Shown piece after piece: positions 1-19,654 of a stretch of DNA of 22,245 nt. Origin of the DNA: a virus. Made by a program: the position numbers and the translations under genes. The notes under the pieces were generated by a model. That model did no database searches and had not been told where the DNA came from. It was given only the letters and a program-made list of their open reading frames with translations. The stretch's first letter is position 1. Each line of letters begins with the position of its first letter. The DNA lies in IMG/VR virus record IMGVR_UViG_3300034152_000385, positions 1-22,245 of that record. One strand, written 5' to 3'.

Positions 1-667
1 TCCTGCCGGTTAGTCCTGTATCTGCTGTTGGTCCACCAATCTCAAAATTTCCAGTGGGATTGATAAACACTTGTCCAATCTCTTCTTTAATTATCTCATC
101 TATTACGAAAACTTTAATCATATCTCTTAATTTATCTATGTCCATTGATGTATGATGAGCAGACACTACGACTGTTTGAATTTTCTCCCCATTAATTGTA
201 ACTTGAGACTTGCCATCTGGTAATAAAAAGTTAAGTATTCTTTCTTTTCTACATTTAGCTAACTGCATAGTTAATTTATGAGCCAAATCTATAGCTAAAG
301 GCATATAATTATCTGTCTCATCAGTAGCGTAACCAAACATCATTCCTTGGTCGCCTGCACCACCAGTATCTACTCCCATAGCAATATCTGGTGATTGTTT
401 CTGAATAGAAGTAATTATTCCAAACTCCTCTGGATAATATCCTATTCTATCTAATGTTTTATTTACTACTGCTGGTACATCTATATAACCTTTAGTAGTC
501 ATTTCTCCTGCAACATAAATAATACCTTTAGTAATTAAAGTTTCACAAGCTACCCTACTATAAGGGTCTTGCCTAAGTGCTTCATCCAGAATAGCATCTG
601 AAATCTGGTCGCATACCTTATCTGGATGGCCTTCTGTTACTGATTCACTAGTAAACAAGTTTAACAT
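1..667 (-). CDS. metK: S-adenosylmethionine synthetase (MetK), 3' end cut by window
   Basis: This gene makes S-adenosylmethionine from ATP and methionine in the cytoplasm. The first 222 codons are in the window and the C-terminal part lies beyond position 1 (family length is about 390 residues). It begins [20 protein letters not shown], the standard MetK start with the GHPDK ATP-binding motif. It continues with [12 protein letters not shown] and, near the edge, [13 protein letters not shown], both family signatures. The ATG at 667 is preceded by AAGGAG, which touches the stop of the 26-codon ORF just upstream. MetK occurs in some large phages as a host-derived metabolic gene. Here it lies directly downstream of a radical SAM gene, and another radical SAM gene is about 4.8 kb upstream, so it may supply their cosubstrate; that link is inference. 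Identity is very secure. Confidence 0.96.
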
Positions 668-768: not shown

Positions 769-1653
769 CTAGAACTGTCTATATCCTCTAAACTTAGTAT
801 TGTGTCTCATGTATAAATCATTAGCTTGTCTCTTCATATATTGGTCTTGCTTTCTATAATAATTACTGATAATCTGACAATTTGCGTGATATAGAGCCTC
901 ATGAATTTCATCAGTACTCATCTCATCTTCAATAAAATTGACAGCTACTAAATCACTATTTAAATGTTTATTCTCATAAAAATCTTCAGCATCTTTTATC
1001 AAACCGTCCTTGATTGCTTTATAATATAATGGACAACCAGGATACGGTGTTACTGGTCTAATCGTTCTCAATTGAGCACAATCATCATACTTTAGAAGAA
1101 AATCAACTGCATTAGCTAAGGTCTTTCTATTATCACCGGGATTACCGAACATGATATTTAAACCGGGACTAATACCAACTTTAAGAGTAGCTTCAACTCC
1201 TCTTTTAATTATATCAATAGTCAGAGCTTTGTTCATTAATCTTAGAACATTATCATTAAGAGCCTCGATGCCATAATTGATAAAGATACAACCCGCTTTC
1301 TTCATCAACTTTAGTACGTCTTCTCTAGCGTAATTCAATCTACCGTTACAATGCCATCTGATTCTTAAATCTGCCTTAATGATTGCCTCACAAAGACTTA
1401 CAGTTCTTGGTATAGAGGACATTAACAATTCATCTGAGAAATCTATAACATTAATCCCATATACTTCTTGTAAAAATTTTATCTCATCTATAATAGCTTC
1501 ATTACTACGAGGTCTAAATCCCTTATCCATACGATAACAATTATGTACTAAAATATTATTAGCAAAATAGTTATTATGTGGATAGCAAGAGATATTATAA
1601 AGTTTATCTGTTTTTTTAATCTTCTCTATTTTTTTAATCTTAATCCATTTCAT
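769..1653 (-). CDS. C-intein plus C-terminal half of a split B12-type radical SAM protein
   Basis: Residues 1-38 are a C-intein ending NNILVHN. Residue C39 begins the C-extein, CYRMDKGFRPRS, which carries the third cysteine of the radical SAM cluster motif. The rest is the radical SAM barrel: IDFSDELL (substrate/cluster strand), RWHCNGRLN, GCIFINYGIEALND and GLNIMFGNPGDN are typical of the B12-binding/Elp3-type SAM barrel. It cannot bind a cluster alone, because the first two cysteines are encoded in the ORF at 3084-3983. Trans-splicing should join 208 upstream and 256 downstream residues. The ATG at 1653 overlaps the stop of the nuclease gene (ATGA), so translation is probably coupled. The substrate of the assembled enzyme is unknown. 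Confidence 0.9.
   Translation of the reverse strand: MKWIKIKKIEKIKKTDKLYNISCYPHNNYFANNILVHNCYRMDKGFRPRSNEAIIDEIKFLQEVYGINVIDFSDELLMSSIPRTVSLCEAIIKADLRIRWHCNGRLNYAREDVLKLMKKAGCIFINYGIEALNDNVLRLMNKALTIDIIKRGVEATLKVGISPGLNIMFGNPGDNRKTLANAVDFLLKYDDCAQLRTIRPVTPYPGCPLYYKAIKDGLIKDAEDFYENKHLNSDLVAVNFIEDEMSTDEIHEALYHANCQIISNYYRKQDQYMKRQANDLYMRHNTKFRGYRQF
1540..1653 (-). mobile_element. C-terminal half of a split intein (IntC, 38 residues)
   Basis: The ORF starts MKWIKIKKIEKIKKTDKLYN and ends ISCYPHNNYFANNILVHN before Cys+1. This matches intein blocks F and G: the YNIS...HNNYFANNILVHN pattern, penultimate His, terminal Asn, and a Cys nucleophile as first extein residue. A length of 38 residues is normal for a naturally split C-intein. 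The Lys-rich first 17 residues may pair with the N-half, whose C-terminal region has acidic patches; that pairing is inference. Confidence 0.92.
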
Positions 1654-2330
1654 AATATTCCTAATTTTTTTAAATCTTTTTGAAATAATAATTCAACTAT
1701 TAAATGAGGGTATTGTTTTTTAAATAACTCAAATTTCTTTTTAGCTTTATCTCTCCACCAACCTTTAATTTCTATATATTTATTTTCCTTTGGTAAGTAA
1801 AAATCAGGACAATAGCCAACTAACTCTTTTTTAATATATACTTTAAAAATAGAAGGTTCATATATCCATTTTATTTTATTCTTATCCAGATATTTAGCAT
1901 AAGCTAATTCATATGAAGATTTAAAGTGATTATTTTTATATTTATATCTTTTAAATTTTTTCATATTAAAATTTCTTTCGTATAACCAATTTCTAGCTTT
2001 TTCTTTTTTTAAATTAGCTATCTCCTCACCATAAAAATCTATCCATGTTTTACCTTTCATAATTCTTAAAGGATTTTTATCTGAATTTGCTCTCTTTTTA
2101 GCTATCTTACTAATAATCCTTTTTCCTTTATTTGTACACATAAAAGGAGTAATTTTACCTTCTTTAAATAATCTTTTTTGAGTATCGGCTACTTTTTTAG
2201 CAATAACTTTATTTTTCATTGGATTTTTCTTTTTCATTCTAATAGAATTAGCTTTAGACCTACATTTTATAGAGTAATATTTCTTTTGTTGTTTAATAAG
2301 TATTTTTTGACAAATGTTACAATTTTTCAT
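1650..2330 (-). CDS. PD-(D/E)XK homing-type endonuclease with NUMOD3-like repeats
   Basis: The 226-residue basic protein has three parts. The N-terminus has C4, C7 and C23 and could hold a small metal site. Residues about 35-115 carry NPMKNK and NPLRIMKGK segments that resemble the NUMOD3 DNA-binding repeats of homing nucleases. Residues about 138-190 form a nuclease core: SSYELAYAKYLD (E141), YCPDFYLP (D176) and KYIEIKG (E187, K189), the E...PD...ExK pattern of Vsr/EDxHD-like nucleases. Such nucleases are known inside split-intein genes, where they would cut intein-less alleles and drive homing. The start overlaps the methyltransferase end by 14 bases, and its stop overlaps the IntC start by 4. 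The target site is not visible. It could instead be the restriction partner of the methyltransferase. Confidence 0.82.
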   Translation of the reverse strand: MKNCNICQKILIKQQKKYYSIKCRSKANSIRMKKKNPMKNKVIAKKVADTQKRLFKEGKITPFMCTNKGKRIISKIAKKRANSDKNPLRIMKGKTWIDFYGEEIANLKKEKARNWLYERNFNMKKFKRYKYKNNHFKSSYELAYAKYLDKNKIKWIYEPSIFKVYIKKELVGYCPDFYLPKENKYIEIKGWWRDKAKKKFELFKKQYPHLIVELLFQKDLKKLGIL

Positions 2331-3087
2331 TTTTTAATCTTTTCTTCGCAATCTCACAATAATTTTTATCTATTTCTATTCCTATAAAATTTCTATTTAA
2401 ATTTTTAGATGCTATTGCAGTTGTTCCACTTCCTAAAAAACAATCTAATATTAAATCATTTTCTTTAGTATGTAATTTTATTATTCTTTCTATTGCTCTT
2501 AATGGTTTGGGTGTAAAATGTAATTTTCTAAATCTTTTTAATTCTTTTGAATTATAAAAAGAGATTTCATTTATATCAGTCCATACGTTAGTCCATCTTT
2601 TGTTTTCATTTAACATTCTATTACTTAAATTTTTTCCTTCAAAATAAAATCCATCTAATTTTCTCTTTTCATTACTGTATTGTTCATTTTTATTCCAAAC
2701 AAATTTCTTATTATTTTTTACAAACCACATAATTTCTTCTCTCGTATAAAGCCATCCTATACGCATACCAATACCACGTTGTTTTTTCCAAGTAATTAAA
2801 TCTTTAAAATGAAAATATTTTTTAAGTAAAGGAAACCATCTAATTAAACTCTGACTCTTCTCTCCAATACCACACCAAATATAAATATTGCAACTATCTT
2901 TAGCTACTCTAAATAACTCTTTAATTACCTCATCGTTAAATACTTCTTTCTTATCCCATTTCTGATTAGTAGTCAGATATGGAGGGTCAGTAATGATTAA
3001 ATCAATACTTTCATCTGGTATTTCTTTCATTATATCTAAACAATTTCCTTGAATTATTTTGTTAATAAAATCTTCTGGATATTTCAT
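2317..3087 (-). CDS. Beta-class DNA methyltransferase (N6-adenine or N4-cytosine)
   Basis: The 256-residue protein has the catalytic motif IV, LIITDPPYLTT (D34-P-P-Y37), near the N-terminus. The SAM-binding motif I, LDCFLGSGTTAIA (215-227), lies near the C-terminus, followed by NFIGIEIDKNY. This order is the beta class of amino-methyltransferases, and HFTPKPL just before motif I is typical of it. Length fits a compact stand-alone enzyme whose recognition region lies between the motifs. Its ATG overlaps the stop of the N-intein ORF (ATGA), and its 3' end overlaps the nuclease start. It lies inside the fractured radical SAM gene, where a methyltransferase is unexpected. It may protect the target of the neighbouring nuclease, or the whole phage genome; neither is proven by the sequence. 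Confidence 0.9.
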   Translation of the reverse strand: MKYPEDFINKIIQGNCLDIMKEIPDESIDLIITDPPYLTTNQKWDKKEVFNDEVIKELFRVAKDSCNIYIWCGIGEKSQSLIRWFPLLKKYFHFKDLITWKKQRGIGMRIGWLYTREEIMWFVKNNKKFVWNKNEQYSNEKRKLDGFYFEGKNLSNRMLNENKRWTNVWTDINEISFYNSKELKRFRKLHFTPKPLRAIERIIKLHTKENDLILDCFLGSGTTAIASKNLNRNFIGIEIDKNYCEIAKKRLKNEKL

Positions 3088-3359
3088 ATTTTTAATACCT
3101 CATCTCCTTCTTTTAAATCTTTAACTTCCACCCATCCTCTTTTTGTATATACCGGATGTTCTTCTGATATTTCTAATTCTGTTTTATCTTCCAGAGTAAT
3201 TTTATAATATTCTCCCTTTCTTTCAAATAAATCAGTTACTCTAGTTTCTTCTATTGTGTTTTCTTTTTCATTAAATCCTAAAACTATATCATCTTTTTTA
3301 AGTTTTTTTATCTCTTTTTCTCCGTTAGAAGTTTTTATTTTAGTATTTTCTGTTAGGCA
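3084..3359 (-). mobile_element. N-terminal half of a split intein (IntN, 91 residues)
   Basis: It starts at C209 of the radical SAM N-half with CLTENTKIKTSNGEKEIKKL, the usual block A with catalytic Cys1. It continues through DDIVLGFNE to block B (ELEISEEHPVYT, an SxxH variant of TxxH) and ends GWVEVKDLKEGDEVLKI at a natural stop. That end point corresponds to the usual break between N- and C-inteins. There is no LAGLIDADG or HNH domain; the endonuclease function seems to have moved to the free-standing gene downstream. Confidence 0.92.
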
Positions 3360-3983
3360 GAAAGCACAATTAAATGTACACCCTCTACCAGATAATACTG
3401 GCATTATCAAATCAGTAGGTTTAGTATGAACGTATCTCTGAAGTCTATAAAAAGCTATAGGAAACAACTCATAAGCAGGCCAAGGTATTGTATCTATATC
3501 TTTAATTAACTCTCGTCTAGGATTTATCTTAATCTCATCAACATATCTGTAAGCAATACCTTTAACTTCATCTACTTCTTTTTCATTTCTGATAGTATCT
3601 AGTAATTCAATTATAGTTTCCTCACCTTCACCAATAACAATTATATCTGCACCAGTTTTCTTAAAAAAGAATTCAGGTTCAGGTGATGGTCCATGACCCC
3701 CAAGAATATATATAGGTTTTACATCAGCATTATTAATAGCTTTGGATATCTCTTTTATTTTATGATATTGATAATATCCTGCTATTAGATTAACACCAAC
3801 TACATCAAAATGTTCGTGGTTGAGGTATTCAGTAAGATGTTCATCTGGATAATGATGCATATCTTGATTGTAAATCTCAACATCATACCCATTCTTAACT
3901 AAAGTTCCAGCTATATATGCCAATCCTTGAGGGAATGGTGGTACAAACGACCCATTATCATAAACTACTAGTAGTATTTTCAT
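3084..3983 (-). CDS. N-terminal half of a split B12-type radical SAM protein plus N-intein
   Basis: Residues 1 to about 140 form a cobalamin-binding-like Rossmann domain: MKILLVVYDNG, PPFPQGLAYIAGTL, IYILGGHGPSPEPE and IIVIGEGEETI are hallmarks of B12-binding radical SAM proteins. A linker of the IPWPAYELFP type leads into the radical SAM start VLSGRGCTFNCAF, which gives cluster cysteines C202 and C206. At C209 the extein stops and an N-intein begins, running to the stop. The third cluster cysteine is supplied by the other ORF at 769-1653. The ATG at 3983 overlaps the stop of the VOC gene (TAATG). No strict DxHxxG cobalamin loop is obvious, so B12 binding is likely but not certain. The substrate is unknown. 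Confidence 0.88.
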   Translation of the reverse strand: MKILLVVYDNGSFVPPFPQGLAYIAGTLVKNGYDVEIYNQDMHHYPDEHLTEYLNHEHFDVVGVNLIAGYYQYHKIKEISKAINNADVKPIYILGGHGPSPEPEFFFKKTGADIIVIGEGEETIIELLDTIRNEKEVDEVKGIAYRYVDEIKINPRRELIKDIDTIPWPAYELFPIAFYRLQRYVHTKPTDLIMPVLSGRGCTFNCAFCLTENTKIKTSNGEKEIKKLKKDDIVLGFNEKENTIEETRVTDLFERKGEYYKITLEDKTELEISEEHPVYTKRGWVEVKDLKEGDEVLKI

Positions 3984-4510
3984 TATTCATCAGCATCTTT
4001 ATAATCTTTCTCTAAATCAGCTTCACTTATACTTTTAGGACTTTTCTTCATAGGAATCTTTTTCTTAGTTGTCTTCATTGGAATTCTTTTCTTAGATAAT
4101 CTAGTTGTCCCTTTATGAACTTTTAAATCTTCAACTAACTCAATCATATTTCCATCATAGTCATAGCAGAAACATAGCTTACATTCTCCTGCTGGGTCAA
4201 TAATAGGTGGAGACATAAACTTAACTTGTTCTCCAATCAATTTAATATACAATGCATCAACATCATCAACTGAAAATGCTAAATGATTCCAACGACCTTT
4301 CTGTTTATCTCTAGGCATTAAATACATTTCGATCATATCATCATCTTTTTTAAGCTTGATATACTCAACATTAACAACACCAAGTAATTGCTTGATGTAA
4401 TTTACATCTTCCTTTGCTTTCTTAACTACTTTGAATCCTAACAAATCTCTGTAGAATCTCAAAGCAGTCTTCTCATCATGAACACTAAATCCTACATGTC
4501 TAATTTTCAT
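3983..4510 (-). CDS. VOC-superfamily (glyoxalase-like) metalloprotein with Lys-rich tail
   Basis: The protein has two vicinal-oxygen-chelate half-repeats. The first opens with KIRHVGFSVHDEKTALRFYRD, the second with RWNHLAFSVDDVDALY. H5, E61, H76 and E124 sit where the four metal ligands of glyoxalase/epimerase-type VOC enzymes lie. Residues about 130-175 are an extra tail with a repeated KKRIPMK/KKKIPMK unit, then an acidic end. I chose the ATG at 4510: a GGAGG SD stands 7 bases upstream and the codon overlaps the stop of the SDR gene (TAATG). An in-frame start at 4534 lacks an SD. VOC enzymes include lyases, epimerases and antibiotic-resistance proteins; the reaction here cannot be told. Confidence 0.85.
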   Translation of the reverse strand: MKIRHVGFSVHDEKTALRFYRDLLGFKVVKKAKEDVNYIKQLLGVVNVEYIKLKKDDDMIEMYLMPRDKQKGRWNHLAFSVDDVDALYIKLIGEQVKFMSPPIIDPAGECKLCFCYDYDGNMIELVEDLKVHKGTTRLSKKRIPMKTTKKKIPMKKSPKSISEADLEKDYKDADE

Positions 4511-5457
4511 TACAAACCTCCATTTGCTAACCATCCACCATCTATATAAATATCTTGCCCAGTAACATACTTGGCATTTACTAAGAATTTAATGGCTTCT
4601 TTTACATCTTCTGGTTTTCCCCAACGCTTTAAAGGAATCATACTAGTAACTTTCTTTCTTCTGTTTTTCCAAGAGTATTTAGTCATATTTGTTTTAAAAT
4701 AACCTAAACCAATATTATTAACTCTAACTTTAGGTGCATAATCCATTGCTAATGCTTTAGTTAATTGTTTCAAACCACCTTTAGATACACCATATGCTGG
4801 ATTGCCTTTGAATCCTCTTTCTGACCAAAGACTAGTTATGTTTATTATACAACCTCCTTCTTTCATCTTTTCATAAGCTAGTTGAGATAATTGAAATGGA
4901 GCTAATAAATTGATGTTTAACATATAATGCCAATCTCCTTGAGCAACTCCAGCACAATTTACTAATACTTCTAGATTTTTAACTTGTTTAAATACTTTCT
5001 CCATTTCCCAAAGGTTCTCAACAAACTCAACACCTTCAATTGTTCCATCATGTGTTGGTGCATTATCTATTACTCTAACGATATATCCCATTTCAGTTAA
5101 AGCATCTACAATAGCTCTACCAATACCACCACGACCACCAGTAACTATAGCTGATTTTTGTTCTTGAAAGTAATCGTCAGAAATAATAGATTTATCATCT
5201 ATGAAATAATCTGCATCTGGCTTTCCCATTATTAACTCTTGATATTTACAGCCCCACTCTTTTAATTGCTTTTCAGTAAGCTTTCTCCAGTCTTTACCAG
5301 TACTCCCACCTCTGGCAGTAAAGTAGATTATATGATTATGCCAATCGTAGAGTTGATTTATATGAGCTATTCTATCTTTATAAGGCTTAGCGTTTTTATA
5401 ATCTCCTCTGGTATCAGTACAAATGGTGCCGTCAATATCTATACAGTACTTCTTCAT
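4510..5457 (-). CDS. Fusion of HAD-type phosphatase and short-chain dehydrogenase/reductase
   Basis: Two enzymes are joined in 315 residues. Residues 1 to about 95 are a HAD-like phosphatase: DIDGTI (D7, D9), FTAR (46-49) and GKPDADYFIDDKS (78-90) correspond to HAD motifs I, II and III/IV, without a large cap. Residues about 100-315 are a classical SDR: TGGRGGIG cofactor loop (106-113), NCAG (167-170), S209, and Y222-x-x-x-K226. The C-terminal VTGQDIYIDGGW is typical of SDRs that reduce small carbonyl or sugar substrates. The ATG overlaps the radical SAM stop (ATGA). HAD and SDR steps are common in nucleotide-sugar and surface-glycan pathways, and a glycosyltransferase-like gene is nearby, but the substrate is unknown. 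Confidence 0.9.
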   Translation of the reverse strand: MKKYCIDIDGTICTDTRGDYKNAKPYKDRIAHINQLYDWHNHIIYFTARGGSTGKDWRKLTEKQLKEWGCKYQELIMGKPDADYFIDDKSIISDDYFQEQKSAIVTGGRGGIGRAIVDALTEMGYIVRVIDNAPTHDGTIEGVEFVENLWEMEKVFKQVKNLEVLVNCAGVAQGDWHYMLNINLLAPFQLSQLAYEKMKEGGCIINITSLWSERGFKGNPAYGVSKGGLKQLTKALAMDYAPKVRVNNIGLGYFKTNMTKYSWKNRRKKVTSMIPLKRWGKPEDVKEAIKFLVNAKYVTGQDIYIDGGWLANGGL

Positions 5458-6254
5458 AGCAACCCTCTAGGTATTCCCCAATACTCACATTCATTACATA
5501 GAGGTATTTCATTTCTTTTTCCGTCTATGTGTTTTTGTAAATACTCTTTTCTTTTCTTACCATTCCAAATCTCTTCAAGAGTTTGAGTATTTAAATCTCC
5601 TATAATTAATTTGTCTTCTGGATCGAATCTAACACAAGGAGATACTTTACCAAATCTATCAATAGATAAATGATTTAATATTTCTAAACAAAACCCTACT
5701 TCTGGTATAACTACTTTCTTTTCATAATCATAACTACCCATAGGAGAATGAAGTATTCTATCTATTGTCATAACTCCTAAATCTATCCATCTTCTCTTAT
5801 CTAAGACATCACCATTAAATCTAATAATAACTCTAGGTTTTCTATTTCCTCTATCTTCTAGAAACTTTTTAACTATTTCATATTGTTCATCTCCATCTGG
5901 ATCATTAGGTATAACAGATACAGTAATTACTTCACAACGTTCAATTATGCTAGAATATTGTTTCATTAGTAGTTTTCCGTTCGTATCGAAATGTCTAATA
6001 CAATGACCAAATAAATCTAAAGCTTTTAATAGATGAGGATATAAAAGAGGTTCTCCATTATTATGAAAATGAATAAGAATTCCTTCAGGTACTTGTTTAG
6101 CTATCTTTTCTACTAGAGCTATATCCATATCTCCATAGTTAGTAACTAATTCTGGGTAATCCCTCTCTATTTTTCTTCTACCACAAATCCAGCAATTTTT
6201 ATTACATTTTGATGTGAGTTCGATATGAATAGCATAGAGTCCAGTTAAAGCCAT
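5454..6254 (-). CDS. Radical SAM enzyme with SPASM-like C-terminal domain
   Basis: A 266-residue radical SAM protein. The cluster motif is CNKNCWIC (C17, C21, C24), followed by IHFHNNGEPLLYP, the GGEP-type SAM-binding strand, with HNNGEP in place of the more usual GGEP. The C-terminal part has SIDRFGKVSPCVRF (C207), IGDLNTQTLEEIW and PLCNECEYWG (C253, C256), the pattern of a SPASM/Twitch auxiliary-cluster domain, with C189 as a possible extra ligand. Such enzymes modify peptides or small molecules. The ATG at 6254 has AAGGA about 10 bases upstream and follows a small ORF by TAATG overlap. It lies in a run of metabolic genes with a HAD-SDR fusion just downstream. No peptide precursor is evident nearby, so the substrate is unknown. 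Confidence 0.9.
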   Translation of the reverse strand: MALTGLYAIHIELTSKCNKNCWICGRRKIERDYPELVTNYGDMDIALVEKIAKQVPEGILIHFHNNGEPLLYPHLLKALDLFGHCIRHFDTNGKLLMKQYSSIIERCEVITVSVIPNDPDGDEQYEIVKKFLEDRGNRKPRVIIRFNGDVLDKRRWIDLGVMTIDRILHSPMGSYDYEKKVVIPEVGFCLEILNHLSIDRFGKVSPCVRFDPEDKLIIGDLNTQTLEEIWNGKKRKEYLQKHIDGKRNEIPLCNECEYWGIPRGLL

Positions 6255-6355
6255 TATATTAATTCCTTTTTTATCAATTTATATCCATTACTATATCCGT
6301 ATTTTGGTAAATTATTTCTTATTGCAATTCTAATTAATTCTTTATCTACTTTCAT
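6254..6355 (-). CDS. 33-residue hypothetical peptide
   Basis: A short ORF, starting MKVDKELIRIAIRNNLPKYG and ending LIKKELI, fills the gap between the small membrane protein gene and the SPASM radical SAM gene. Its TAA stop overlaps the radical SAM start (TAATG), the same coupling seen elsewhere. Against it, the only SD-like sequence (CAGGA) is about 15 bases from the ATG. It is basic, probably helical and has no recognised family. Its position next to a SPASM protein makes it a weak candidate substrate peptide; it has no Cys and only one Ser, so this is speculative. Confidence 0.4.
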   Translation of the reverse strand: MKVDKELIRIAIRNNLPKYGYSNGYKLIKKELI

Positions 6356-6374
6356 TGAATTGCATATAATCCTG

Positions 6375-6581
6375 TTAACATTTTATATAATTTACTATTC
6401 CTATTATCATTGCTACTGTATTCATTATCATACCGAAATATAGTTGTTTAGTATAATGTATTATTGTCCATAAAAAACAACCAAAAGCATATAATAACCA
6501 CCAATTTCTATGTTGAGGTATTAGTACTAGAGAAGCTAATACTATAGTTGCACCTATTAAATCAAATTTATTTATTTTCAT
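6375..6581 (-). CDS. Small three-helix membrane protein
   Basis: The 68-residue protein has three hydrophobic stretches: residues about 8-22 (LIGATIVLASLVLIP), 27-43 (WWLLYAFGCFLWTIIHY) and 48-66 (YFGMIMNTVAMIIGIVNYI). Small proteins of this shape are common in phages and loosely resemble part of PnuC-like transporters; I would not assign a transport role. The ATG at 6581 overlaps the stop of the metallopeptidase-like gene by 4 bases (ATGA). Confidence 0.75.
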   Translation of the reverse strand: MKINKFDLIGATIVLASLVLIPQHRNWWLLYAFGCFLWTIIHYTKQLYFGMIMNTVAMIIGIVNYIKC

Positions 6582-7039
6582 ACTATGGTATCTTTATAAT
6601 CTTTTATTCTTATAAAAGCTTTATAATAAATAGGTTCATGTTTTTTATAATATTTCATTCTCTGTAATTTAATAAATCTTTTTATTAGTAATTTATATTG
6701 TTTAGGATAATACTTTTTCATCATATCACAGGAAAACTTTTCAGCTTGATATTCACTTTCTATTTGCTGTTTTTTAGTATTATATGGTAAGTTATTAATT
6801 AAATGTCCTATTTCATGAAATATATCACTAATAAGAATACATTTAGGACAAGCTCCAAGTCTTCTTGAATGATACCTCAAACAAACATTATTTTTATCTT
6901 GCCAATTGTCTATGGCAAGTGGACAATCTAATCTATTGTCTTTTCTTATTTCAACAGGTTTTGGTAATTTCAATCTACCACACCAATAATGAAATAGTTT
7001 GATTAATTGTATTGCCTTAGTTCCCTTTCTTTCTGCCAT
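6578..7039 (-). CDS. HEIGH-motif zinc metallopeptidase-like protein
   Basis: The 153-residue protein carries FHEIGHLINN (HEIGH at 75-79), the HExxH zinc and catalytic motif. About 15-20 residues later comes ESEYQAEKFSCDMM, whose acidic residues can supply the third zinc ligand, as in ImmA/IrrE-type peptidases. A preceding CPKC (64-67) may bind another metal. It is short for a full ImmA protein, with no helix-turn-helix domain, and very basic at its C-terminus. ImmA-like peptidases cleave phage repressors; anti-repressor or host-factor cleavage is possible but not shown. The start has an AGAGGT SD and overlaps the glycosyltransferase end by 23 bases. Confidence 0.72.
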   Translation of the reverse strand: MAERKGTKAIQLIKLFHYWCGRLKLPKPVEIRKDNRLDCPLAIDNWQDKNNVCLRYHSRRLGACPKCILISDIFHEIGHLINNLPYNTKKQQIESEYQAEKFSCDMMKKYYPKQYKLLIKRFIKLQRMKYYKKHEPIYYKAFIRIKDYKDTIV

Positions 7040-7658
7040 CCAACATACCTCTAATGTGCAATGTTTTTTTGTACATTCTACTTGCTTGATAATGTCTTAT
7101 AACTGGATCCAATTTGACTATTGGTTTGCCTCCTCTAGGTAAACTATCTATATAAATATATTCTAGAGGTAAAGGATATACTTTTAAATTATATTTTCCG
7201 ATTATTCTTTGCAATACTTTTTGTTCCCATTCATTACTTTTTACTGCTTCTTCATGCCATTCTTTACATAAATCTTTAACTATTTTACGATTGCGGAAGT
7301 ACATAGTTCCAGTAAGAAGTTCTTTAACATCTTTTCCTTTATAACCATACCATTGATTCCAAGATAAAGTATGGTAAGATATATCATATTCTTCTGGTAT
7401 TTCATCAAAGAATATTGGATATTTTTCTACTTTAGCATCTGCATCTATCCAAACTACATCTTCATTTAATTCATTTAGTTTATCGAGAACAAACTGAGAT
7501 TTTAATGCTGTATTATCGTACCAAGTTCTTCCTCCCTCTATTGTCGATAAATGATATTTTAATTTAAATTTAGTTAAAGATACCTGTAAATAATCTCTCA
7601 TTAAATCTACATAAGGCGTATTGTTTGTTGCGTATGATATTATTGTGTACTTATTCAT
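7017..7658 (-). CDS. GT-A-like glycosyltransferase (putative)
   Basis: The 213-residue protein begins YTIISYATNNTPYVDLMRDY and contains EDVVWIDADAKVEKYP, with DAD at 72-74. That is the hydrophobic strand plus DxD metal/nucleotide-sugar motif of GT-A transferases. A later GTMYFRNRKIVKDLC and EQKVLQRII resemble the acceptor side of nucleotide-diphospho-sugar transferases of phage and capsule loci. It overlaps the upstream gene by 8 bases and the downstream peptidase-like gene by 23. Phages use such enzymes to glycosylate DNA or virion proteins or to alter host surfaces; the target is unknown. Confidence 0.65.
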   Translation of the reverse strand: MNKYTIISYATNNTPYVDLMRDYLQVSLTKFKLKYHLSTIEGGRTWYDNTALKSQFVLDKLNELNEDVVWIDADAKVEKYPIFFDEIPEEYDISYHTLSWNQWYGYKGKDVKELLTGTMYFRNRKIVKDLCKEWHEEAVKSNEWEQKVLQRIIGKYNLKVYPLPLEYIYIDSLPRGGKPIVKLDPVIRHYQASRMYKKTLHIRGMLDGRKKGN

Positions 7659-8319
7659 TCGCTATCCTCTCAAAGAAATTGTCATAATCTATCTTCTCAA
7701 ATTGATATAAGTTACTGTTAGGACTGACATTATATATTTTTATTTTCTCTTTTAAATATAAATCAAAGTCTTTAATAAAGATTTTTCCTAATTTCTCTAG
7801 ATATATTTCAGGATTTCCGGCTCCTCTTGAATATATGTTTAAATCTTTTATCTTATCTTGATAGTAATGTGTTTTTCTTTGATTTACTGAAGTTGTTCCC
7901 CAATCATAGCCAAGTATGTAAGCAATATCATAATCTTCTAATACTGCAAGAGATAAAGCAAAACAACCACTTAAACCATGTCCACCAATAAAGACCAAAG
8001 GAACATTTTTCATTCCTTCTCCATAAAACTCTCTCTGCCTACAACATTCCTTTTGTTCTACTACATCTCCAATAAAAGCATACTTTCTATGTGCTTTACA
8101 AGTTAGTTTAACTCCTTGGCTTCCCATAACTTGTATATAATGTGCGTTATGTTCAAAGAATCTATAATCTACCCATAGTTGTCTAGTTGGATTGTATGGC
8201 ATAGTTCTAAAAGCTGAATTGAGAGACCATACTTCTCTACCTTTTATCTTATCCCATAGTCTCTTATCAATTCCCTCTTGAATACTAGAACCGCCACCTA
8301 CTATAATTACTGATTTCAT
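7651..8319 (-). CDS. DUF115 / norphogenetic-like phage protein
   Basis: The 222-residue protein opens with SVIIVGGGSSIQEGIDKRLW, a glycine-rich Rossmann-like loop, followed by VWSLNSAFRTMPYNPTRQLW. The middle has GGHGLSGCFALSLAVLEDYD and IAYILGYDWG. This order (GGGSS..., N.AF, GLSG..AL..A, GYD) is seen in phage norphogenetic-type proteins and in the DUF115/sialyltransferase-like group. It probably binds a nucleotide or nucleotide-sugar. It starts by TAATG overlap with the gp46-like gene and is followed by a glycosyltransferase-like gene, so the two may act together. The exact function is not known to me. Confidence 0.6.
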   Translation of the reverse strand: MKSVIIVGGGSSIQEGIDKRLWDKIKGREVWSLNSAFRTMPYNPTRQLWVDYRFFEHNAHYIQVMGSQGVKLTCKAHRKYAFIGDVVEQKECCRQREFYGEGMKNVPLVFIGGHGLSGCFALSLAVLEDYDIAYILGYDWGTTSVNQRKTHYYQDKIKDLNIYSRGAGNPEIYLEKLGKIFIKDFDLYLKEKIKIYNVSPNSNLYQFEKIDYDNFFERIANE

Positions 8320-10913: not shown

Positions 10914-11037
10914 TTTTTGGTACTAATTTGCTTTTACAATATGGACATAAATCTTCCTCTAGAGCATACTTATCCTCTATAGGTCTATTACATTTATTAC
11001 ACCACCACCAAAATGCATTAGGGTCTCCATGAGCCAT
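10897..11037 (-). CDS. 46-residue zinc-ribbon protein
   Basis: A small ORF between thyX and the Mre11-like gene reads MAHGDPNAFWWWCNKCNRPI and on through LCPYCKSKLVPK. Two CxxC pairs (C13/C16 and C31/C34) form a clear zinc ribbon, preceded by a run of three tryptophans. The ATG at 11037 lies inside the last codons of thyX and has a GAGGTGG SD 4 bases away. Its stop lies 17 bases inside the Mre11-like gene, which has no SD of its own. Zinc ribbons of this size bind nucleic acid or act as protein adaptors; the partner is unknown. Confidence 0.8.
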   Translation of the reverse strand: MAHGDPNAFWWWCNKCNRPIEDKYALEEDLCPYCKSKLVPKNVDIR

Positions 11038-12721
11038 TTTCCACCTCTATATCTTCAAACACTTCTGGTAATCTTTTCTTAAATTCACTTAATATTCTAC
11101 AAGCTACTTCTCTCATTTGAGGGTGTGCTGTTTTATGGGTTCTTAGCTTTAAGAAATGTCTCCATTCTCTTAGATTATATGTTATAACTATCTCTGTTTT
11201 TAATGAGTTAGGTAATACTGAACGAGCTTCTTGAGGAGTTGCCCCATACATTATCATAAGATTGTATATTTTTTCACATTGTTGCATATGACAATCCCAT
11301 AAATTATAAAGTTCATCATTTTTAGCTGGAGAGGGACTATTCCAAAAACAAGGTATTATAAACTCCATATCTTTACCTGCATAATTACAGTATCGAGTAG
11401 ATTCTTGAGAATAGCTACCTAGTCTATGTCTTACTAACTCATGTGAATTTCCACACCAAACAGGTTTTCCATTTCTCATAACATATAATTTATGATATTT
11501 TGGCATTTCTACACAATAAACATCATCACAATTACCTTCAATTTTATAACTTTTTTCATTTTTTCTAAAATAATGATTAATAGTATTAATAATGCTAACT
11601 CTATATGTTTTAACTTTTCCTTGAATAAAATGATTTGGTCTATTTCTAACATCTAAATAAGAAATATTTGCTGTTTTTCCTATCTTTAAGGCTATTTCTA
11701 CAATATCTTCTGCAAACTTTTCTGATGCAGTATAAATATAAAATCCTTTGGATTTAGAATGATTAGTTCCGTCTCCTAATTTTATACCTTCAAGTAAAGA
11801 TTCTAAACATTCTTTACTTTCATTTTTAATCCAGAATGGTAGAGAAATATAATAAGTTTTTTTATAATCATCATTTTTAAGAAAATTTTCTTTTAAAAAA
11901 TAATATAAAGGTAAATTATTTATGATATATTCATTTTTTTTAATTCTATAATTTATTCTTAATATTTTAAGAATTTTTTCTATTTCTTTCTTCCCTTTTT
12001 CTTTTTTTTGGGATATTACAATAGAGCCACCATTATTATTCTTTCTATGAGTTAAACTTCCATCAGTTATCCAAACACCTAAAAACTTATAAAAATCTTT
12101 CCTATTATATATATCACCTTTAAATATTTTCTTATAAAATCCTCTATTAATTAATCTATTCTCGATTTTGATTTCTTTTTTAGATTTTTTCTTCCAAAAA
12201 TTACATCCTTTAGAAAATTTATACGCTTTATTAAACATTTCTATTGCTCTAATAAATTTCCACTCTTTTTTTCTCGTATGAATATCTTGTACCCACATTT
12301 TATGTTCAGGAGTTACTAACAAATCAATTTGAGTCGTTTTGAAATTTATAAGGTCTCCTGTATAAAATTCTTTTATTAATTTAAAATTTTTAGTTAAAAT
12401 TAATTCATCTTTATTATTTTTAGTGTATATTAAATCATTACTATTAACTTCATAAAAATATTTCCAACCATTATTTGTCAAAACTTTAGTATCTGCTGAA
12501 TAACAAACCCCTCTATCACAAATCACTCGAACCGTAATCTTCTCATGCTCTATAACAGATTCATGTCCTCTTTTAAGAATCATTTTAACAAACTTAACTG
12601 CTGAAGCATGATTAGATTTATTCTCGCTTTTATAACAAGTTCGTCCAGCCTTTTCTATTCTCTTTAACATTTTCAGAGAATTAAAAGGTTCTATTTCTAT
12701 ACTAGGCTTTATTATCTTCAT
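11018..12721 (-). CDS. thyX: Flavin-dependent thymidylate synthase ThyX, interrupted by an intein
   Basis: ThyX makes dTMP from dUMP using FAD, NADPH and methylene-tetrahydrofolate. The host protein is residues 1-72 plus 426-567, about 214 residues after splicing, the normal ThyX size. N-extein: RTCYKSE, RGHESVIEHE and VRVICDRGV are conserved ThyX segments. C-extein: SHELVRHRLGSYSQESTRYC contains the RHRxxSxxxxSxR signature. Later segments include NSLKTEIVITYNLREWRHFL and HPQMREVA. A LAGLIDADG intein occupies residues 73-425. The gene starts inside the end of the small SH3-like gene and overlaps the zinc-ribbon gene at its 3' end. ThyX replaces or supplements a host ThyA in dTMP supply for phage DNA. 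Confidence 0.97.
   Translation of the reverse strand: MKIIKPSIEIEPFNSLKMLKRIEKAGRTCYKSENKSNHASAVKFVKMILKRGHESVIEHEKITVRVICDRGVCYSADTKVLTNNGWKYFYEVNSNDLIYTKNNKDELILTKNFKLIKEFYTGDLINFKTTQIDLLVTPEHKMWVQDIHTRKKEWKFIRAIEMFNKAYKFSKGCNFWKKKSKKEIKIENRLINRGFYKKIFKGDIYNRKDFYKFLGVWITDGSLTHRKNNNGGSIVISQKKEKGKKEIEKILKILRINYRIKKNEYIINNLPLYYFLKENFLKNDDYKKTYYISLPFWIKNESKECLESLLEGIKLGDGTNHSKSKGFYIYTASEKFAEDIVEIALKIGKTANISYLDVRNRPNHFIQGKVKTYRVSIINTINHYFRKNEKSYKIEGNCDDVYCVEMPKYHKLYVMRNGKPVWCGNSHELVRHRLGSYSQESTRYCNYAGKDMEFIIPCFWNSPSPAKNDELYNLWDCHMQQCEKIYNLMIMYGATPQEARSVLPNSLKTEIVITYNLREWRHFLKLRTHKTAHPQMREVACRILSEFKKRLPEVFEDIEVENGSWRP
11447..12505 (-). mobile_element. ThyX intein with LAGLIDADG homing endonuclease (353 residues)
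   Basis: It begins at C73 with CYSADTKVLTNNGWKYFYEV (block A), has LLVTPEHKMWV (block B, TxxH), and ends LYVMRNGKPVWCGN before Ser426. The penultimate residue is Gly rather than His. Between the splicing blocks are two LAGLIDADG motifs, FLGVWITDGSL and LLEGIKLGDGT; both keep the catalytic Asp, so the nuclease may be active. Excision joins DRGV to SHELVRHR, restoring the ThyX signature without a gap. This confirms the boundaries. Confidence 0.93.
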
Positions 12722-16273: not shown

Positions 16274-19200
16274 TCATAAATGACACTCATCTCCATCACA
16301 TTTATTTCTTTTAGTGGGTTTTCTCTTGAGAACTCCTCCTTTTGATCCATCACGAAATATAGTTACTCCTTTCACTCCTAACTTCCAAGCTGTCATATAT
16401 ACTTCTTTAACATCATCAACACTAGCTTCATTAGGCATGTTTACTGTTTTAGAAATACTACCATCTAACCACTTTTGCCATTGAGCTTGTATCTTCAGAT
16501 GCCACTCTGGCGTTATATCATGAGCAGTTCTAACAAATTTAGATTTATATAGCTCTCTAGTTTCTCTTATAACTCCTACGGTTAGATGCCTTTCAAAATC
16601 AACATCAAATACTGGTTCTATTCCACTACTACAATCTGCAAGTAATGATAATGAACCAGTAGGTGCTATTATCCTCTTCCAAAAACAATCTTTAGCTAAC
16701 TTATCTGTAACTTCTTTATATACTTTACCAATCTCATCAATAAAGTCTAATGATTCCTGACTATCATATTTAATACCTAGTTTAATCAAACAATCTGCAA
16801 ATCCCATTACACCTACACCAATAGGATCCAACTCTTTCATAGTTCTAGTTATTTCAGGTAGAGGATAATGTGAATTACCTGTAATACAAACTTTACCATT
16901 TCTTCTGACTATCCAAAATCCATTTTCTACAGTAGGACACCAAACTTTTCCTTTAAAATTTTTGATTTCTTTCTTTCTAATGTGTCTATATTTTCTTTTA
17001 TTAATTCTAATAACTCCAACTTGAGAAATTGTAGGTTTAATTAGAGTATTTCTATAACCAATTAATGTAGTTAGAAATTGAAATCTATTTAACGCTTTTA
17101 AATCTTTTGCCGCATAAGTATAGTTCCAATAATCTTTTGTACTGCCGTCTCCTTTTATCATAGTATCAAAAAGTAATTTTAATTGTCTTAAAGAAAAAGA
17201 ATTAAATATCCATAAAGGGATAATTTTATGATTTTCTTCTAATTTTAATTCTTTTGAAAAAGAAACAGGTAAATACCAACTGTCCTTCTTTGGATTTGCT
17301 ATTTTTAATCCTAAATCTTTAAATATATCATCTAATTCTTTCGAATATTGAGGATGAATCCCCCTACTTTGTGATATAACATAAGCATTTTTATTTTTAT
17401 GTCCTTCTGTAATTACCCAACCAATTAATTTAATAATATTATCATCGATATTAAAATCTTTTTCTCTATTAATTGGTCTGCAAGCAGGAATTTGACACTG
17501 TTGTGGTAAATGTTTTGCTGTAGCTATTCTATAGCTAAAAGGATTAACTGATACTCTTTGTCTTAAATTATAAGGAGAAAATATAACTTTATGATTAGGA
17601 GTAACTAATAAATCTAAACCTGATTTTGAAGACAATTCTATCATGTTTTCATTTTCTAAATCGAACTCATTAATTTTCAGAATAGGTTGCCATTCACTTT
17701 TATCAGTATGTAGCGAATATGTTAATATTTCTTCTCCTTTGCTTAATTCATTATATTTTTTCCATCCTTCTTTAGTTAATGCTTCAGCATCATCTGTAAC
17801 GCATACTGCATTATTATTTCTTAATGCTCTAACGGCAATTTCTAGATGTTTTTCAAATAACTTAAAATCAAATTTGTTATATCTTACTAATTTACTTATA
17901 TTTATAGAACCAAGACAACAAGCTCCGTATGAAGGAAGAGGAACCTCACCACATGGGTTGGTACTTTTTATTTTAACCTTCGGAAAAAGTTTATTATCCT
18001 TATTAATTCTATCGTAAAATAGAAACCCAGGATCACCACTATTCCAAGCACAGAAACAAATGACATCAAATATGGTTTTAGCATTAATAACTCCCCATGT
18101 TGAATTATCTTGGGGATTCTTTAATTCAATCTCTTCCCCTTTCTCTACTTTTTTCATAAACGAATCACTAACCATAATAGATATATTAAAGTTAGTTAGA
18201 TTGTGAGCTAACTTACTTCTAATAAACTCTATAACTTCTGCATGTTCGAAGTTTAAAACTCCCATTAAAGCGCCTCGTCTAAAACCACCTTGTTTAACTA
18301 CCTCAGTTGCAGTATCAAATAGTTTCATAAATGATACAACACCACTTGATGTTCCACCAGTTCCTAGTTGTGCATCTCTAGGCCTCAATTTACTGAAGTT
18401 CATTCCAACTCCACCACCATTTTTGAAGATAATAATCATATCATGAAGAGCTTTACTAATACTCTCCATACTATCTTCAACTGGTAATACAAAACAGTTA
18501 TGAGCTATAAATCCATTGGCAAAATTCCAATGGGGAGTTTCTTTCATTGTAAAATCAAATACTTCACAATTTTCCAACTCTTTTATTTCTATAACTTTTA
18601 ATTTACAATCAAAAGAATATTCACTTTTCCTAATTAATTTATTTTTCTTACTACTGTAAAATCCTATTTTCTCTTTAAAAATATGTGAATTAGTTACTCT
18701 AATAAAAAGATCATATTTTTCTTTTGATAGATAATCTCCATTATACCAATGATGTATTTTAGCTTTTCCAACTGTTATATAGGACGGTATCCCAAAAGAA
18801 GCTAATAATATTTGCACTTTATATATCATACTTTTACAAGTAGTTTTTAAATTGATTTCTCCCTTATTATTAACTGAACCGTTAGCTTCAAATAATCCCA
18901 TTAAAAAACTAGCTACTTTTTCAGAATTGCCATATAAAATATCATCAGGTAAATCTCTATTAGGTAAAGTGTGTTCTAGAAAATCAGTGTTACATCCTAA
19001 TTTTTCTAATTCAATTCTTTTTTTACAATAATCTTTCTTGTTTTTTCTATTGTTTTCAAATTTCGAAAAATTCAAAAAATCTGCAATTTCTTCTTCTTTA
19101 TTTTTATCTATATTTACTTTAACCCAAGTAGTATTCTCTTTACTACCATCTCCAAACAAAAATCCTCTTAATACTTCTAGTTCTGAATATACTTTACAGT

Positions 19201-19654
19201 CTCTATTTCCCAATCCCCATTTTATGTCTTTATTTAAAGTATCTTTTGCTTCAATAAAATTATCATTATCTAACATTATTTTATGATCGGGAGTGCATTT
19301 TATAGATAATCCATTATTACATTTTAACTCTATTATTTCCTTTTCTCCATTTGACCAAGAATACCAATTATCTCCATGAATATCTTCTATTTTTCTCAGT
19401 TTATCATTATCGAGTAAAATTGTATCTCCTGTTAGACATGCATGAAGCATTCCTTTTTTAGTTCCTGCATTTCTTAGACAAGGAGAATTAGGGAGAAAAT
19501 ATCCTTCAGTCATAGCACATTTCAGCTTTTTTTCGAACTTCTTGTCTCCCAGAGATAAAGCCTCTGCTACTCTTTTGTAAACGTCTTTAGGTTGCTCACC
19601 TTCTCGACAATATCTTTGACGTAATAAATTCTTTGCGTTTTTACTTATTGCCAT
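16274..19654 (-). CDS. nrdJ: Class II (B12-dependent) ribonucleotide reductase with two inteins
   Basis: The enzyme reduces ribonucleotides to deoxyribonucleotides using adenosylcobalamin. Removing two inteins (residues 73-386 and 618-927) leaves about 502 residues, short for NrdJ and with no ATP-cone. Extein landmarks: FLPNSPCLRNAG, CFVLPVEDSM (redox Cys, residue 387), FKNGGGVGMNFSKLRP, NPCGEVPL (radical Cys 568, Glu 570), CCLGSINI, GVGVMGFADCLIKLGI and IAPTGSLSLLADCSSGIEP. NPCGE rather than class I NLCxEI points to class II. The tail CDGDECHL has a Cys pair for thioredoxin-type reduction. The ATG at 19654 overlaps the previous stop (TAATG). It should supply dNTPs for the polymerase upstream without oxygen. 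Confidence 0.94.
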   Translation of the reverse strand: MAISKNAKNLLRQRYCREGEQPKDVYKRVAEALSLGDKKFEKKLKCAMTEGYFLPNSPCLRNAGTKKGMLHACLTGDTILLDNDKLRKIEDIHGDNWYSWSNGEKEIIELKCNNGLSIKCTPDHKIMLDNDNFIEAKDTLNKDIKWGLGNRDCKVYSELEVLRGFLFGDGSKENTTWVKVNIDKNKEEEIADFLNFSKFENNRKNKKDYCKKRIELEKLGCNTDFLEHTLPNRDLPDDILYGNSEKVASFLMGLFEANGSVNNKGEINLKTTCKSMIYKVQILLASFGIPSYITVGKAKIHHWYNGDYLSKEKYDLFIRVTNSHIFKEKIGFYSSKKNKLIRKSEYSFDCKLKVIEIKELENCEVFDFTMKETPHWNFANGFIAHNCFVLPVEDSMESISKALHDMIIIFKNGGGVGMNFSKLRPRDAQLGTGGTSSGVVSFMKLFDTATEVVKQGGFRRGALMGVLNFEHAEVIEFIRSKLAHNLTNFNISIMVSDSFMKKVEKGEEIELKNPQDNSTWGVINAKTIFDVICFCAWNSGDPGFLFYDRINKDNKLFPKVKIKSTNPCGEVPLPSYGACCLGSINISKLVRYNKFDFKLFEKHLEIAVRALRNNNAVCVTDDAEALTKEGWKKYNELSKGEEILTYSLHTDKSEWQPILKINEFDLENENMIELSSKSGLDLLVTPNHKVIFSPYNLRQRVSVNPFSYRIATAKHLPQQCQIPACRPINREKDFNIDDNIIKLIGWVITEGHKNKNAYVISQSRGIHPQYSKELDDIFKDLGLKIANPKKDSWYLPVSFSKELKLEENHKIIPLWIFNSFSLRQLKLLFDTMIKGDGSTKDYWNYTYAAKDLKALNRFQFLTTLIGYRNTLIKPTISQVGVIRINKRKYRHIRKKEIKNFKGKVWCPTVENGFWIVRRNGKVCITGNSHYPLPEITRTMKELDPIGVGVMGFADCLIKLGIKYDSQESLDFIDEIGKVYKEVTDKLAKDCFWKRIIAPTGSLSLLADCSSGIEPVFDVDFERHLTVGVIRETRELYKSKFVRTAHDITPEWHLKIQAQWQKWLDGSISKTVNMPNEASVDDVKEVYMTAWKLGVKGVTIFRDGSKGGVLKRKPTKRNKCDGDECHL
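16874..17803 (-). mobile_element. NrdJ intein 2 with LAGLIDADG endonuclease (310 residues)
   Basis: It begins at C618 with CVTDDAEALTKEGWKKYNEL, has LDLLVTPNHKVIF (block B, TxxH) and ends GFWIVRRNGKVCITGN before Ser928. Two LAGLIDADG-like motifs are present, KLIGWVITEGH (acidic residue Glu) and LFDTMIKGDGS (Asp), so cutting is possible. Splicing joins LRNNNAV to SHYPLPEITR, giving the usual VxxYPLPE stretch. The C-terminal end resembles that of the ThyX intein. Confidence 0.92.
18497..19438 (-). mobile_element. NrdJ intein 1 with LAGLIDADG domain (314 residues)
   Basis: It begins at C73 (CLTGDTILLDNDKLRKIED), has IKCTPDHKIML (block B) and ends HWNFANGFIAHN before Cys387. LAGLIDADG motifs are LRGFLFGDGS and LMGLFEANGS. 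In the second, the catalytic acid position is Asn, so the nuclease may be weakened or a nickase. Excision leaves HA-CFVLPV, a perfect fit to RNR. Confidence 0.93.

What the first reader, a model, noticed from the sequence alone, without database searches (positions are those of the whole stretch)
1540..3983. Radical SAM gene fractured by a split intein that encloses a methyltransferase and a nuclease
The sequence shows N-extein plus IntN (3983-3084), a DPPY methyltransferase, a PD-(D/E)XK nuclease, and IntC plus C-extein (1653-769). All four ORFs overlap by 4 to 14 bases. Known fractured genes with split inteins carry a lone free-standing nuclease; the added methyltransferase makes this a restriction-modification-like cargo inside a host enzyme. 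The cell would obtain a working radical SAM enzyme only by trans-splicing two proteins encoded on either side of that cargo. I know of no described system with this exact content.
Basis: partly seen in the sequence, partly recalled or inferred. Interest (0 to 1): 0.92.

Follow-up and report, generated by a model that had tools for sequence, protein, structure and literature searches.

The report
Methyltransferase carried inside a split intein
A phage enzyme gene is cut in two by a mobile split intein that carries, besides its usual DNA-cutting homing enzyme, a DNA methyltransferase; a second, unrelated phage gene shows the same combination, so these elements can apparently carry extra genes.

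Summary
A B12-binding radical SAM gene is broken at the third cysteine of its CxxxCxxC cluster motif. The order is N-extein+IntN, an intact beta-class DNA methyltransferase, a PD-(D/E)XK nuclease, then IntC+C-extein, all overlapping. Joining the halves gives 464 residues. Every relative examined (12 viral contigs, 80 cellular genomes, 46-64% identical) encodes this uninterrupted.

The locus is a fractured gene with a split intein. The nuclease is of a NUMOD3/T7-endonuclease-I-like family, mostly free-standing in phages, that also sits alone inside other split inteins. It is very probably a homing endonuclease, not half of a restriction system. The methyltransferase's nearest relatives are stand-alone phage enzymes, so I read it as captured cargo, probably anti-restriction.

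The best new evidence is a second case: a terminase gene (L009/L013) split by an intein carrying an HNH nuclease plus a different methyltransferase. Forty other split inteins sampled in phage contigs have none. No such content turned up in phage genomes or in the papers I could read (the founding paper was not held). This is a rare variant, found twice, of a known kind. Splicing, homing and the methyltransferase's role are untested.

The parts
3360..3983 (-). N-extein: B12-binding domain and start of the radical SAM domain, 208 aa, ending CTFNCAF
   Evidence: colinear with the N-terminal part of continuous homologues
3084..3359 (-). IntN: intein N-half, 91 aa, starting CLTENT; stop codon included
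   Evidence: TIGR01445 1.2e-7, PF07591 6.7e-8, PF14890 2.1e-5; GC 26% against 32% in the N-extein
2317..3087 (-). DNA methyltransferase, 256 aa, beta-class motif order (DPPY, then FLGSGTT)
   Evidence: PF01555 1.9e-44 over the whole model; closest solved structure MboIIA, 5e-28; relatives
1650..2330 (-). Probable homing endonuclease, 226 aa: T7-endonuclease-I-like PD-(D/E)XK domain (residues about 130-226) with an N-terminal extension, probably DNA-binding
   Evidence: PF05367 1.4e-9; PDB 1m0d 2.6e-7; E141, D176 and K189 conserved, E187 nearly so; relatives in split inteins; structure models
1540..1653 (-). IntC: intein C-half, 38 aa, ending NNILVHN before Cys+1
   Evidence: PF14890 model positions 119-155, 2.8e-5; GC 19%
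769..1539 (-). C-extein: rest of the radical SAM protein, 256 aa, starting CYRMDKG; stop codon included
   Evidence: PF04055 2.9e-17; colinear with continuous homologues

Best explanation
It is a mobile split-intein cassette (a 'fractured gene') of about 1.8 kb, inserted at the most conserved spot of a phage B12-binding radical SAM gene. The two halves are made as separate proteins from one run of overlapping genes. IntN and IntC associate and splice in trans, rebuilding the CxxxCxxC motif and a 464-residue enzyme. The PD-(D/E)XK nuclease is a homing endonuclease that cuts the uninterrupted gene of a co-infecting phage, so that repair copies the whole cassette. The methyltransferase is an orphan phage DNA methyltransferase picked up as cargo; it most likely methylates the phage genome, for example against host restriction, and so benefits the carrier. 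SHOWN from sequence: anatomy, exact splice junction, catalytic motifs present, uninterrupted relatives, family of each part. INFERRED: splicing, homing, and the role of methylation. Confidence by step: architecture 0.97, trans-splicing 0.85, homing nuclease 0.8, methyltransferase as anti-restriction-type cargo 0.5. The figure below is for the whole statement.
For: Exact junction and uninterrupted relatives. C1, the terminal HN and Cys+1 are all present. The cassette is AT-rich like the three cis inteins of the same contig. The nuclease family is mostly free-standing, 10 of 35 members scanned have NUMOD3, and members sit alone in split inteins L109, L171, L403 and L413. The methyltransferase's relatives are stand-alone. 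A second split intein, in a terminase gene, has an HNH-NUMOD3 nuclease and a 32%-identical methyltransferase, so joint carriage was acquired separately.
Against: No activity is shown for any part. The block-B threonine is a serine (SEEH) and block F has Asn where Asp is usual, though the inteins of L105, L112 and L125 share that Asn. NUMOD3 is not detected in this nuclease itself, and its N-terminal half is modelled with low confidence. No close relative of the whole cassette was found, so mobility is not seen directly. Nothing shows what the methyltransferase modifies.
Confidence: 0.55

Rival explanations
1. Modification-restriction-like pair inside the intein: the methyltransferase protects DNA from the neighbouring nuclease, which attacks unmodified DNA at many sites and so excludes competitors or enforces retention of the cassette.
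For: The two genes are adjacent and overlap by 14 nt. A second split intein also pairs a methyltransferase with a nuclease. PD-(D/E)XK is also the usual fold of restriction enzymes.
Against: Nuclease relatives lack a methyltransferase nearby in 65 of 66 loci and occur alone in other split inteins. PADLOC has no match for the nuclease. Close relatives of the methyltransferase have no such nuclease beside them. The second case uses an unrelated nuclease family.
Confidence: 0.13
2. The nuclease is a phage Holliday-junction resolvase or debranching enzyme, and the cassette is a passive insertion that no longer moves.
For: Best Pfam, PHROG and PDB sequence matches include T7-type resolvases.
Against: The N-terminal extension of about 130 residues, NUMOD3 in 10 of 35 members scanned, and repeated placement between intein halves of unrelated genes are homing-enzyme traits.
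Confidence: 0.08
3. The methyltransferase is a neutral hitch-hiker, left in the cassette by a recombination at the split-intein gap, with no benefit to cassette or phage.
For: Methyltransferase genes are common in phages (1,095 of 50,697 records hold a relative), so chance capture is plausible. None of 40 other split inteins has one.
Against: The frame and motifs are intact, overlaps are tight on both sides, and joint carriage is seen twice with different enzymes.
Confidence: 0.2
4. Assembly artefact: an intact radical SAM gene of one phage joined to sequence from elsewhere.
For: All known relatives are intact; the window is a metagenome-derived virus record.
Against: Both break points fall exactly at intein splice junctions that restore a conserved motif; both intein halves are present and in order; an analogous cassette exists in another contig.
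Confidence: 0.02

Closest known systems
Fractured genes with split inteins and a free-standing homing endonuclease (Dassa et al. 2009, doi 10.1093/nar/gkp095; not held, known to me from memory and from its citation in PMC3653736)
   Same: Phage-type host gene cut in two at an intein site, IntN and IntC on separate proteins, nuclease gene between them, uninterrupted homologues elsewhere.
   Different: A DNA methyltransferase is also inside; the nuclease has a T7-endonuclease-I-like domain rather than the EDxHD type I remember from that paper; the host gene is a radical SAM enzyme.
Split inteins of ribonucleotide reductase (L109, L171) and UDP-sugar dehydrogenase (L403, L413) found here
   Same: Same nuclease family between IntN and IntC.
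   Different: They carry the nuclease alone.
Split-intein terminase of IMGVR_UViG_3300024259_000061 (L009/L013) found here
   Same: Split intein with both a homing-type nuclease and a PF01555 methyltransferase in overlapping order.
   Different: The nuclease is HNH with NUMOD3 and fused to IntN; gene order is nuclease then methyltransferase; the methyltransferases are 32% identical.
Phage methylase genes invaded by inteins or homing elements (PMC9957025, PMC11855218; abstracts seen)
   Same: Phage DNA methylase and an intein or homing element in one locus.
   Different: There the methylase is the host gene being invaded; here it is cargo inside the element.
Type II restriction-modification systems
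   Same: A DNA methyltransferase next to a PD-(D/E)XK nuclease.
   Different: The nuclease is of a homing/resolvase-like family that is not regularly paired with a methyltransferase.

Membership tests
Split intein (naturally fractured gene) | IntN on one protein and IntC on another, with C1, terminal HN and Cys/Ser/Thr+1 | tested here: met
   CLTENT...; NNILVHN|C; TIGR01445 and PF14890 matches on the right parts
Split intein (naturally fractured gene) | Joined exteins equal an uninterrupted homologous protein | tested here: met
   101 of 101 homologue loci span the junction without interruption
Split intein (naturally fractured gene) | Trans-splicing of the two halves | not testable with these tools
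   Needs co-expression
Homing endonuclease | Nuclease catalytic domain with its active-site residues | tested here: met
   E141, D176 and K189 conserved, E187 nearly invariant; PF05367
Homing endonuclease | Encoded inside, or associated with, an intron or intein, or free-standing in phages with modular DNA-binding motifs | tested here: met
   Inside a split intein; relatives free-standing or in split inteins, NUMOD3 in 10 of 35 scanned. NUMOD3 itself is not detected in the window's protein.
Homing endonuclease | Cuts the empty allele and promotes its conversion | not testable with these tools
   Needs a cleavage or co-infection assay
Type II restriction-modification system | DNA methyltransferase gene next to an endonuclease gene | tested here: met
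   Overlap of 14 nt
Type II restriction-modification system | Endonuclease of a known restriction family, with the pairing kept in relatives | tested here: not met
   No PADLOC match; 1 of 66 relatives has a related methyltransferase in its locus
Type II restriction-modification system | Methylation blocks cutting at a shared site | not testable with these tools
   Recognition sites unknown
B12-binding radical SAM enzyme | B12-binding domain, CxxxCxxC and radical SAM barrel in one chain after splicing | tested here: met
   no NCBIfam equivalog reached its cut-off, so the reaction is unknown

The most novel reading that the evidence does not exclude
Split inteins serve as cargo platforms in which a homing nuclease is combined with a DNA methyltransferase that marks the carrier's own DNA. 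The methyltransferase would protect it from the nuclease's off-target cutting, or from nucleases of rival elements: a hybrid of homing and modification-restriction that excludes competitors, while a host enzyme depends on the element through trans-splicing.
Probability: 0.13. Interest if true: 0.85.

Novelty: new variant of a known kind. Interest (0 to 1): 0.56.

Why it matters
Fractured genes are described with a nuclease between the intein halves. Two unrelated phage genes that also carry a methyltransferase suggest that splitting an intein opens a site where extra genes can ride at little cost to the host protein. That would make split inteins a possible route for spreading anti-restriction genes between phages, and it is testable with small constructs. 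It also adds a split intein at a recurrent site, the third cluster cysteine of radical SAM enzymes, where the enzyme should not work until splicing is done.

Tried and rejected
Restriction-modification pair: tested by the neighbourhoods of both families and PADLOC; not supported. Assembly join: rejected on the exact splice junction and the second case.

More cassettes with a methyltransferase: searched through relatives of both methyltransferases (14 and 71 loci), through IntC (157 loci) and through a chimeric IntN+methyltransferase+IntC query in 50,697 phage records; only the terminase case appeared. Two of the five rows of the first IntC query alignment were consensus-like sequences that I wrote to widen the pattern, not real inteins. 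L300 has a methyltransferase, but outside the intein. My first motif test for methyltransferases missed the known case and was replaced by an HMM plus a looser motif.

Intein tree: the window's intein falls near those of other radical SAM genes, but support is 0.29-0.59, so no claim is made. Close relatives of the whole nuclease: only two weak ones at first; a catalytic-domain alignment found 66 loci; an 8-row alignment gave no searchable stretch. Group I introns around 18 nuclease relatives: none in Rfam. Promoter and terminator signals in the cassette: no more than chance. Repeats at the cassette ends: none notable.

Papers: none found with a methyltransferase inside a split intein; Dassa 2009 is not held.
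Full report
WHAT IS THERE. The window is a virus record of 22,245 bases. On its minus strand four open frames overlap: 3983-3084, 3087-2317, 2330-1650 and 1653-769. The first is a B12-binding domain and the beginning of a radical SAM domain (208 aa) followed by an intein N-half (91 aa). The second is a full-length PF01555 DNA methyltransferase (E 1.9e-44). The third is a 226-aa nuclease with a PF05367 domain (E 1.4e-9). The fourth is an intein C-half (38 aa) followed by the rest of the radical SAM protein (256 aa). The break lies at ...CTFNCAF|C..., so the cysteine that follows the intein is the third ligand of the CxxxCxxC iron-sulfur motif; the enzyme should not hold its cluster until the halves are joined (inference). 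The overlaps are 4, 14 and 4 nt, which suggests translational coupling (inference).

THE EMPTY SITE. Nine viral contigs hold the same gene without a break. A profile of the joined protein finds 12 viral loci and 80 bacterial and archaeal loci, 46-64% identical to it. All 101 loci checked (the 9 and the 92, which overlap) read across the junction without an insertion. One of the two patterns used for the profile scans covers the junction and would miss interrupted copies, but the first scan used patterns from the C-terminal half, all but one away from the junction, and also found only intact genes. The cassette is AT-rich: 19-26% GC against 32-33% in the exteins. The three cis inteins of the same contig, one in ThyX and two in the ribonucleotide reductase, show the same drop, and Pfam finds LAGLIDADG domains in both of those proteins.

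THE NUCLEASE. Its C-terminal domain matches T7 endonuclease I by sequence and in Foldseek's ranking (E just above 0.001). The predicted structure is confident only for about residues 130-226. A second structural alignment lists TnsA, I-Bth0305I, Bax1 and Vsr at Z 6-8, as expected for this fold, so structure alone says little about function. Placement says more. An alignment of the catalytic domain finds 66 viral loci. In 64 no intein half was detected around the nuclease; in L403 and L413 it sits between the halves of a split intein that breaks a protein I read as a UDP-sugar dehydrogenase at its GGH|C motif. Two more members sit between intein halves of ribonucleotide reductase genes, L109 and L171. 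Of 35 members scanned, 29 match PF05367 and 10 carry NUMOD3; NUMODs are DNA-binding modules of phage homing endonucleases (PMC3943268). A related methyltransferase lies in only one of the 66 loci, and not next to the nuclease. This is the profile of a homing endonuclease family, not of a restriction enzyme.

THE METHYLTRANSFERASE. It has the beta-class order of motifs (DPPY first, FLGSGTT later) and resembles MboIIA. Its nearest relatives in viral contigs (53-61% identical, L018-L022) are single genes, with no intein signal around them and no nuclease of this family beside them. In 50,697 phage records 1,095 hold a relative, none reaching 60% identity. Orphan methyltransferases of phages often protect against restriction (general knowledge; not tested here). 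Its recognition site cannot be predicted.

A SECOND CASE. One of the contigs with an intact radical SAM gene (L009, IMGVR_UViG_3300024259_000061) has a fractured terminase gene. The N-extein ends ...GFDLYGG and runs into an IntN that is fused to a NUMOD3-HNH nuclease (PF07460 6.9e-11). An overlapping methyltransferase gene follows, then IntC and the terminase C-extein. The joined terminase aligns in one piece to phage proteins annotated as terminase large subunit or terminase (Vibrio and Rhodobacter phages). The two methyltransferases are 32% identical and the two nucleases are of different families, so the combinations arose separately (inference).

HOW RARE IS IT. Two scans for IntC sequences gave 157 loci. 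Pairing IntN with IntC gives 42 usable split inteins, counting the window and the terminase (two false pairings left out by eye). The other 40 have gaps of 82-1363 bp and no methyltransferase between the halves; the two cassettes here have gaps of 1457 and 1560 bp. The terminase case entered the second scan because its own IntC was the query, so it is not part of an unbiased count. A tblastn search of phage records with IntN, methyltransferase and IntC in one query listed no record with all three among the 50 best. I found no paper describing a methyltransferase inside a split intein. The founding paper on fractured genes is not held, so 'not described' holds only for what I could read.

HOW IT MOST LIKELY WORKS. 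The cassette is a mobile split intein. The nuclease cuts the empty radical SAM gene of a co-infecting phage and repair copies the cassette; the intein halves splice the host enzyme back together, which removes the cost. The methyltransferase is cargo that probably modifies phage DNA to the carrier's benefit. The first two steps follow from the known behaviour of these families; the third is the weakest. A link between homing enzymes and anti-defence genes has been shown in another form: SegB of phage T6 amplifies anti-defence loci (PMC13096335).

WHAT IT IS COMPARED WITH. It works like, and by every sequence test made here belongs with, fractured genes with split inteins. It differs by the methyltransferase. 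By the tests available it is not a restriction-modification system: the nuclease is of the wrong family and the two families are not regularly paired. Whether methylation affects cutting could not be tested, so a functional interaction between the two enzymes stays open.

SITE PREFERENCE. The same position, the third cysteine of CxxxCxxC, is occupied by split inteins in two other radical SAM genes (L105, L112) and by a cis intein in another (L286); L151 has one at the second cysteine. L112 and L105 are among the best IntN matches, but the tree is too weak to claim one lineage.

Noticed in passing
L013:3643-1477 (-) and L009:814-2307 (+): Fractured terminase large-subunit gene: IntN fused to a NUMOD3-HNH nuclease, then an overlapping methyltransferase gene, then IntC plus C-extein.
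   Followed up: yes
L151:2891-5002 (+) with ORF 3147-4088 (+): A radical SAM gene with a cis intein whose linker looks low in complexity; a 313-aa ORF in another frame inside it has NUMOD3-like and PD-(D/E)XK-like motifs (seen by eye), so a nuclease may be nested out of frame within an intein. L119, L125 and L286 have similar linkers.
   Followed up: no
L105:2064-4888, L112:2503-4789, L286:2390-5440: Inteins (two split, one cis) at the third cysteine of CxxxCxxC in other radical SAM proteins, the same position as in the window.
   Followed up: partly
L403:2459-4580 and L413:2385-4575: Genes that look like UDP-sugar dehydrogenases, fractured at GGH|C by split inteins with a lone nuclease of the window's nuclease family.
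   Followed up: partly
window 11018-12721 (-) and 16274-19654 (-): Cis inteins in ThyX (one) and in the ribonucleotide reductase (two); LAGLIDADG domains found in both proteins. The contig thus carries at least four inteins, one of them split.
   Followed up: partly
window 2-667 (-): S-adenosylmethionine synthetase gene (N-terminal and central domains, cut by the window end) directly downstream of the radical SAM gene; it would supply the cofactor of both the radical SAM enzyme and the methyltransferase.
   Followed up: no
window 3983-8319 (-): The radical SAM gene sits in a run of glyoxalase-like, HAD/SDR, SPASM radical SAM and sugar-transferase-like genes, possibly for a sugar or surface modification.
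   Followed up: partly
L026:2646-3164, L027:2833-3267, L028:2673-3110 (+): Short T7-endonuclease-I-like proteins without the N-terminal extension lie near methyltransferase genes in three viral contigs; probably ordinary resolvases.
   Followed up: no
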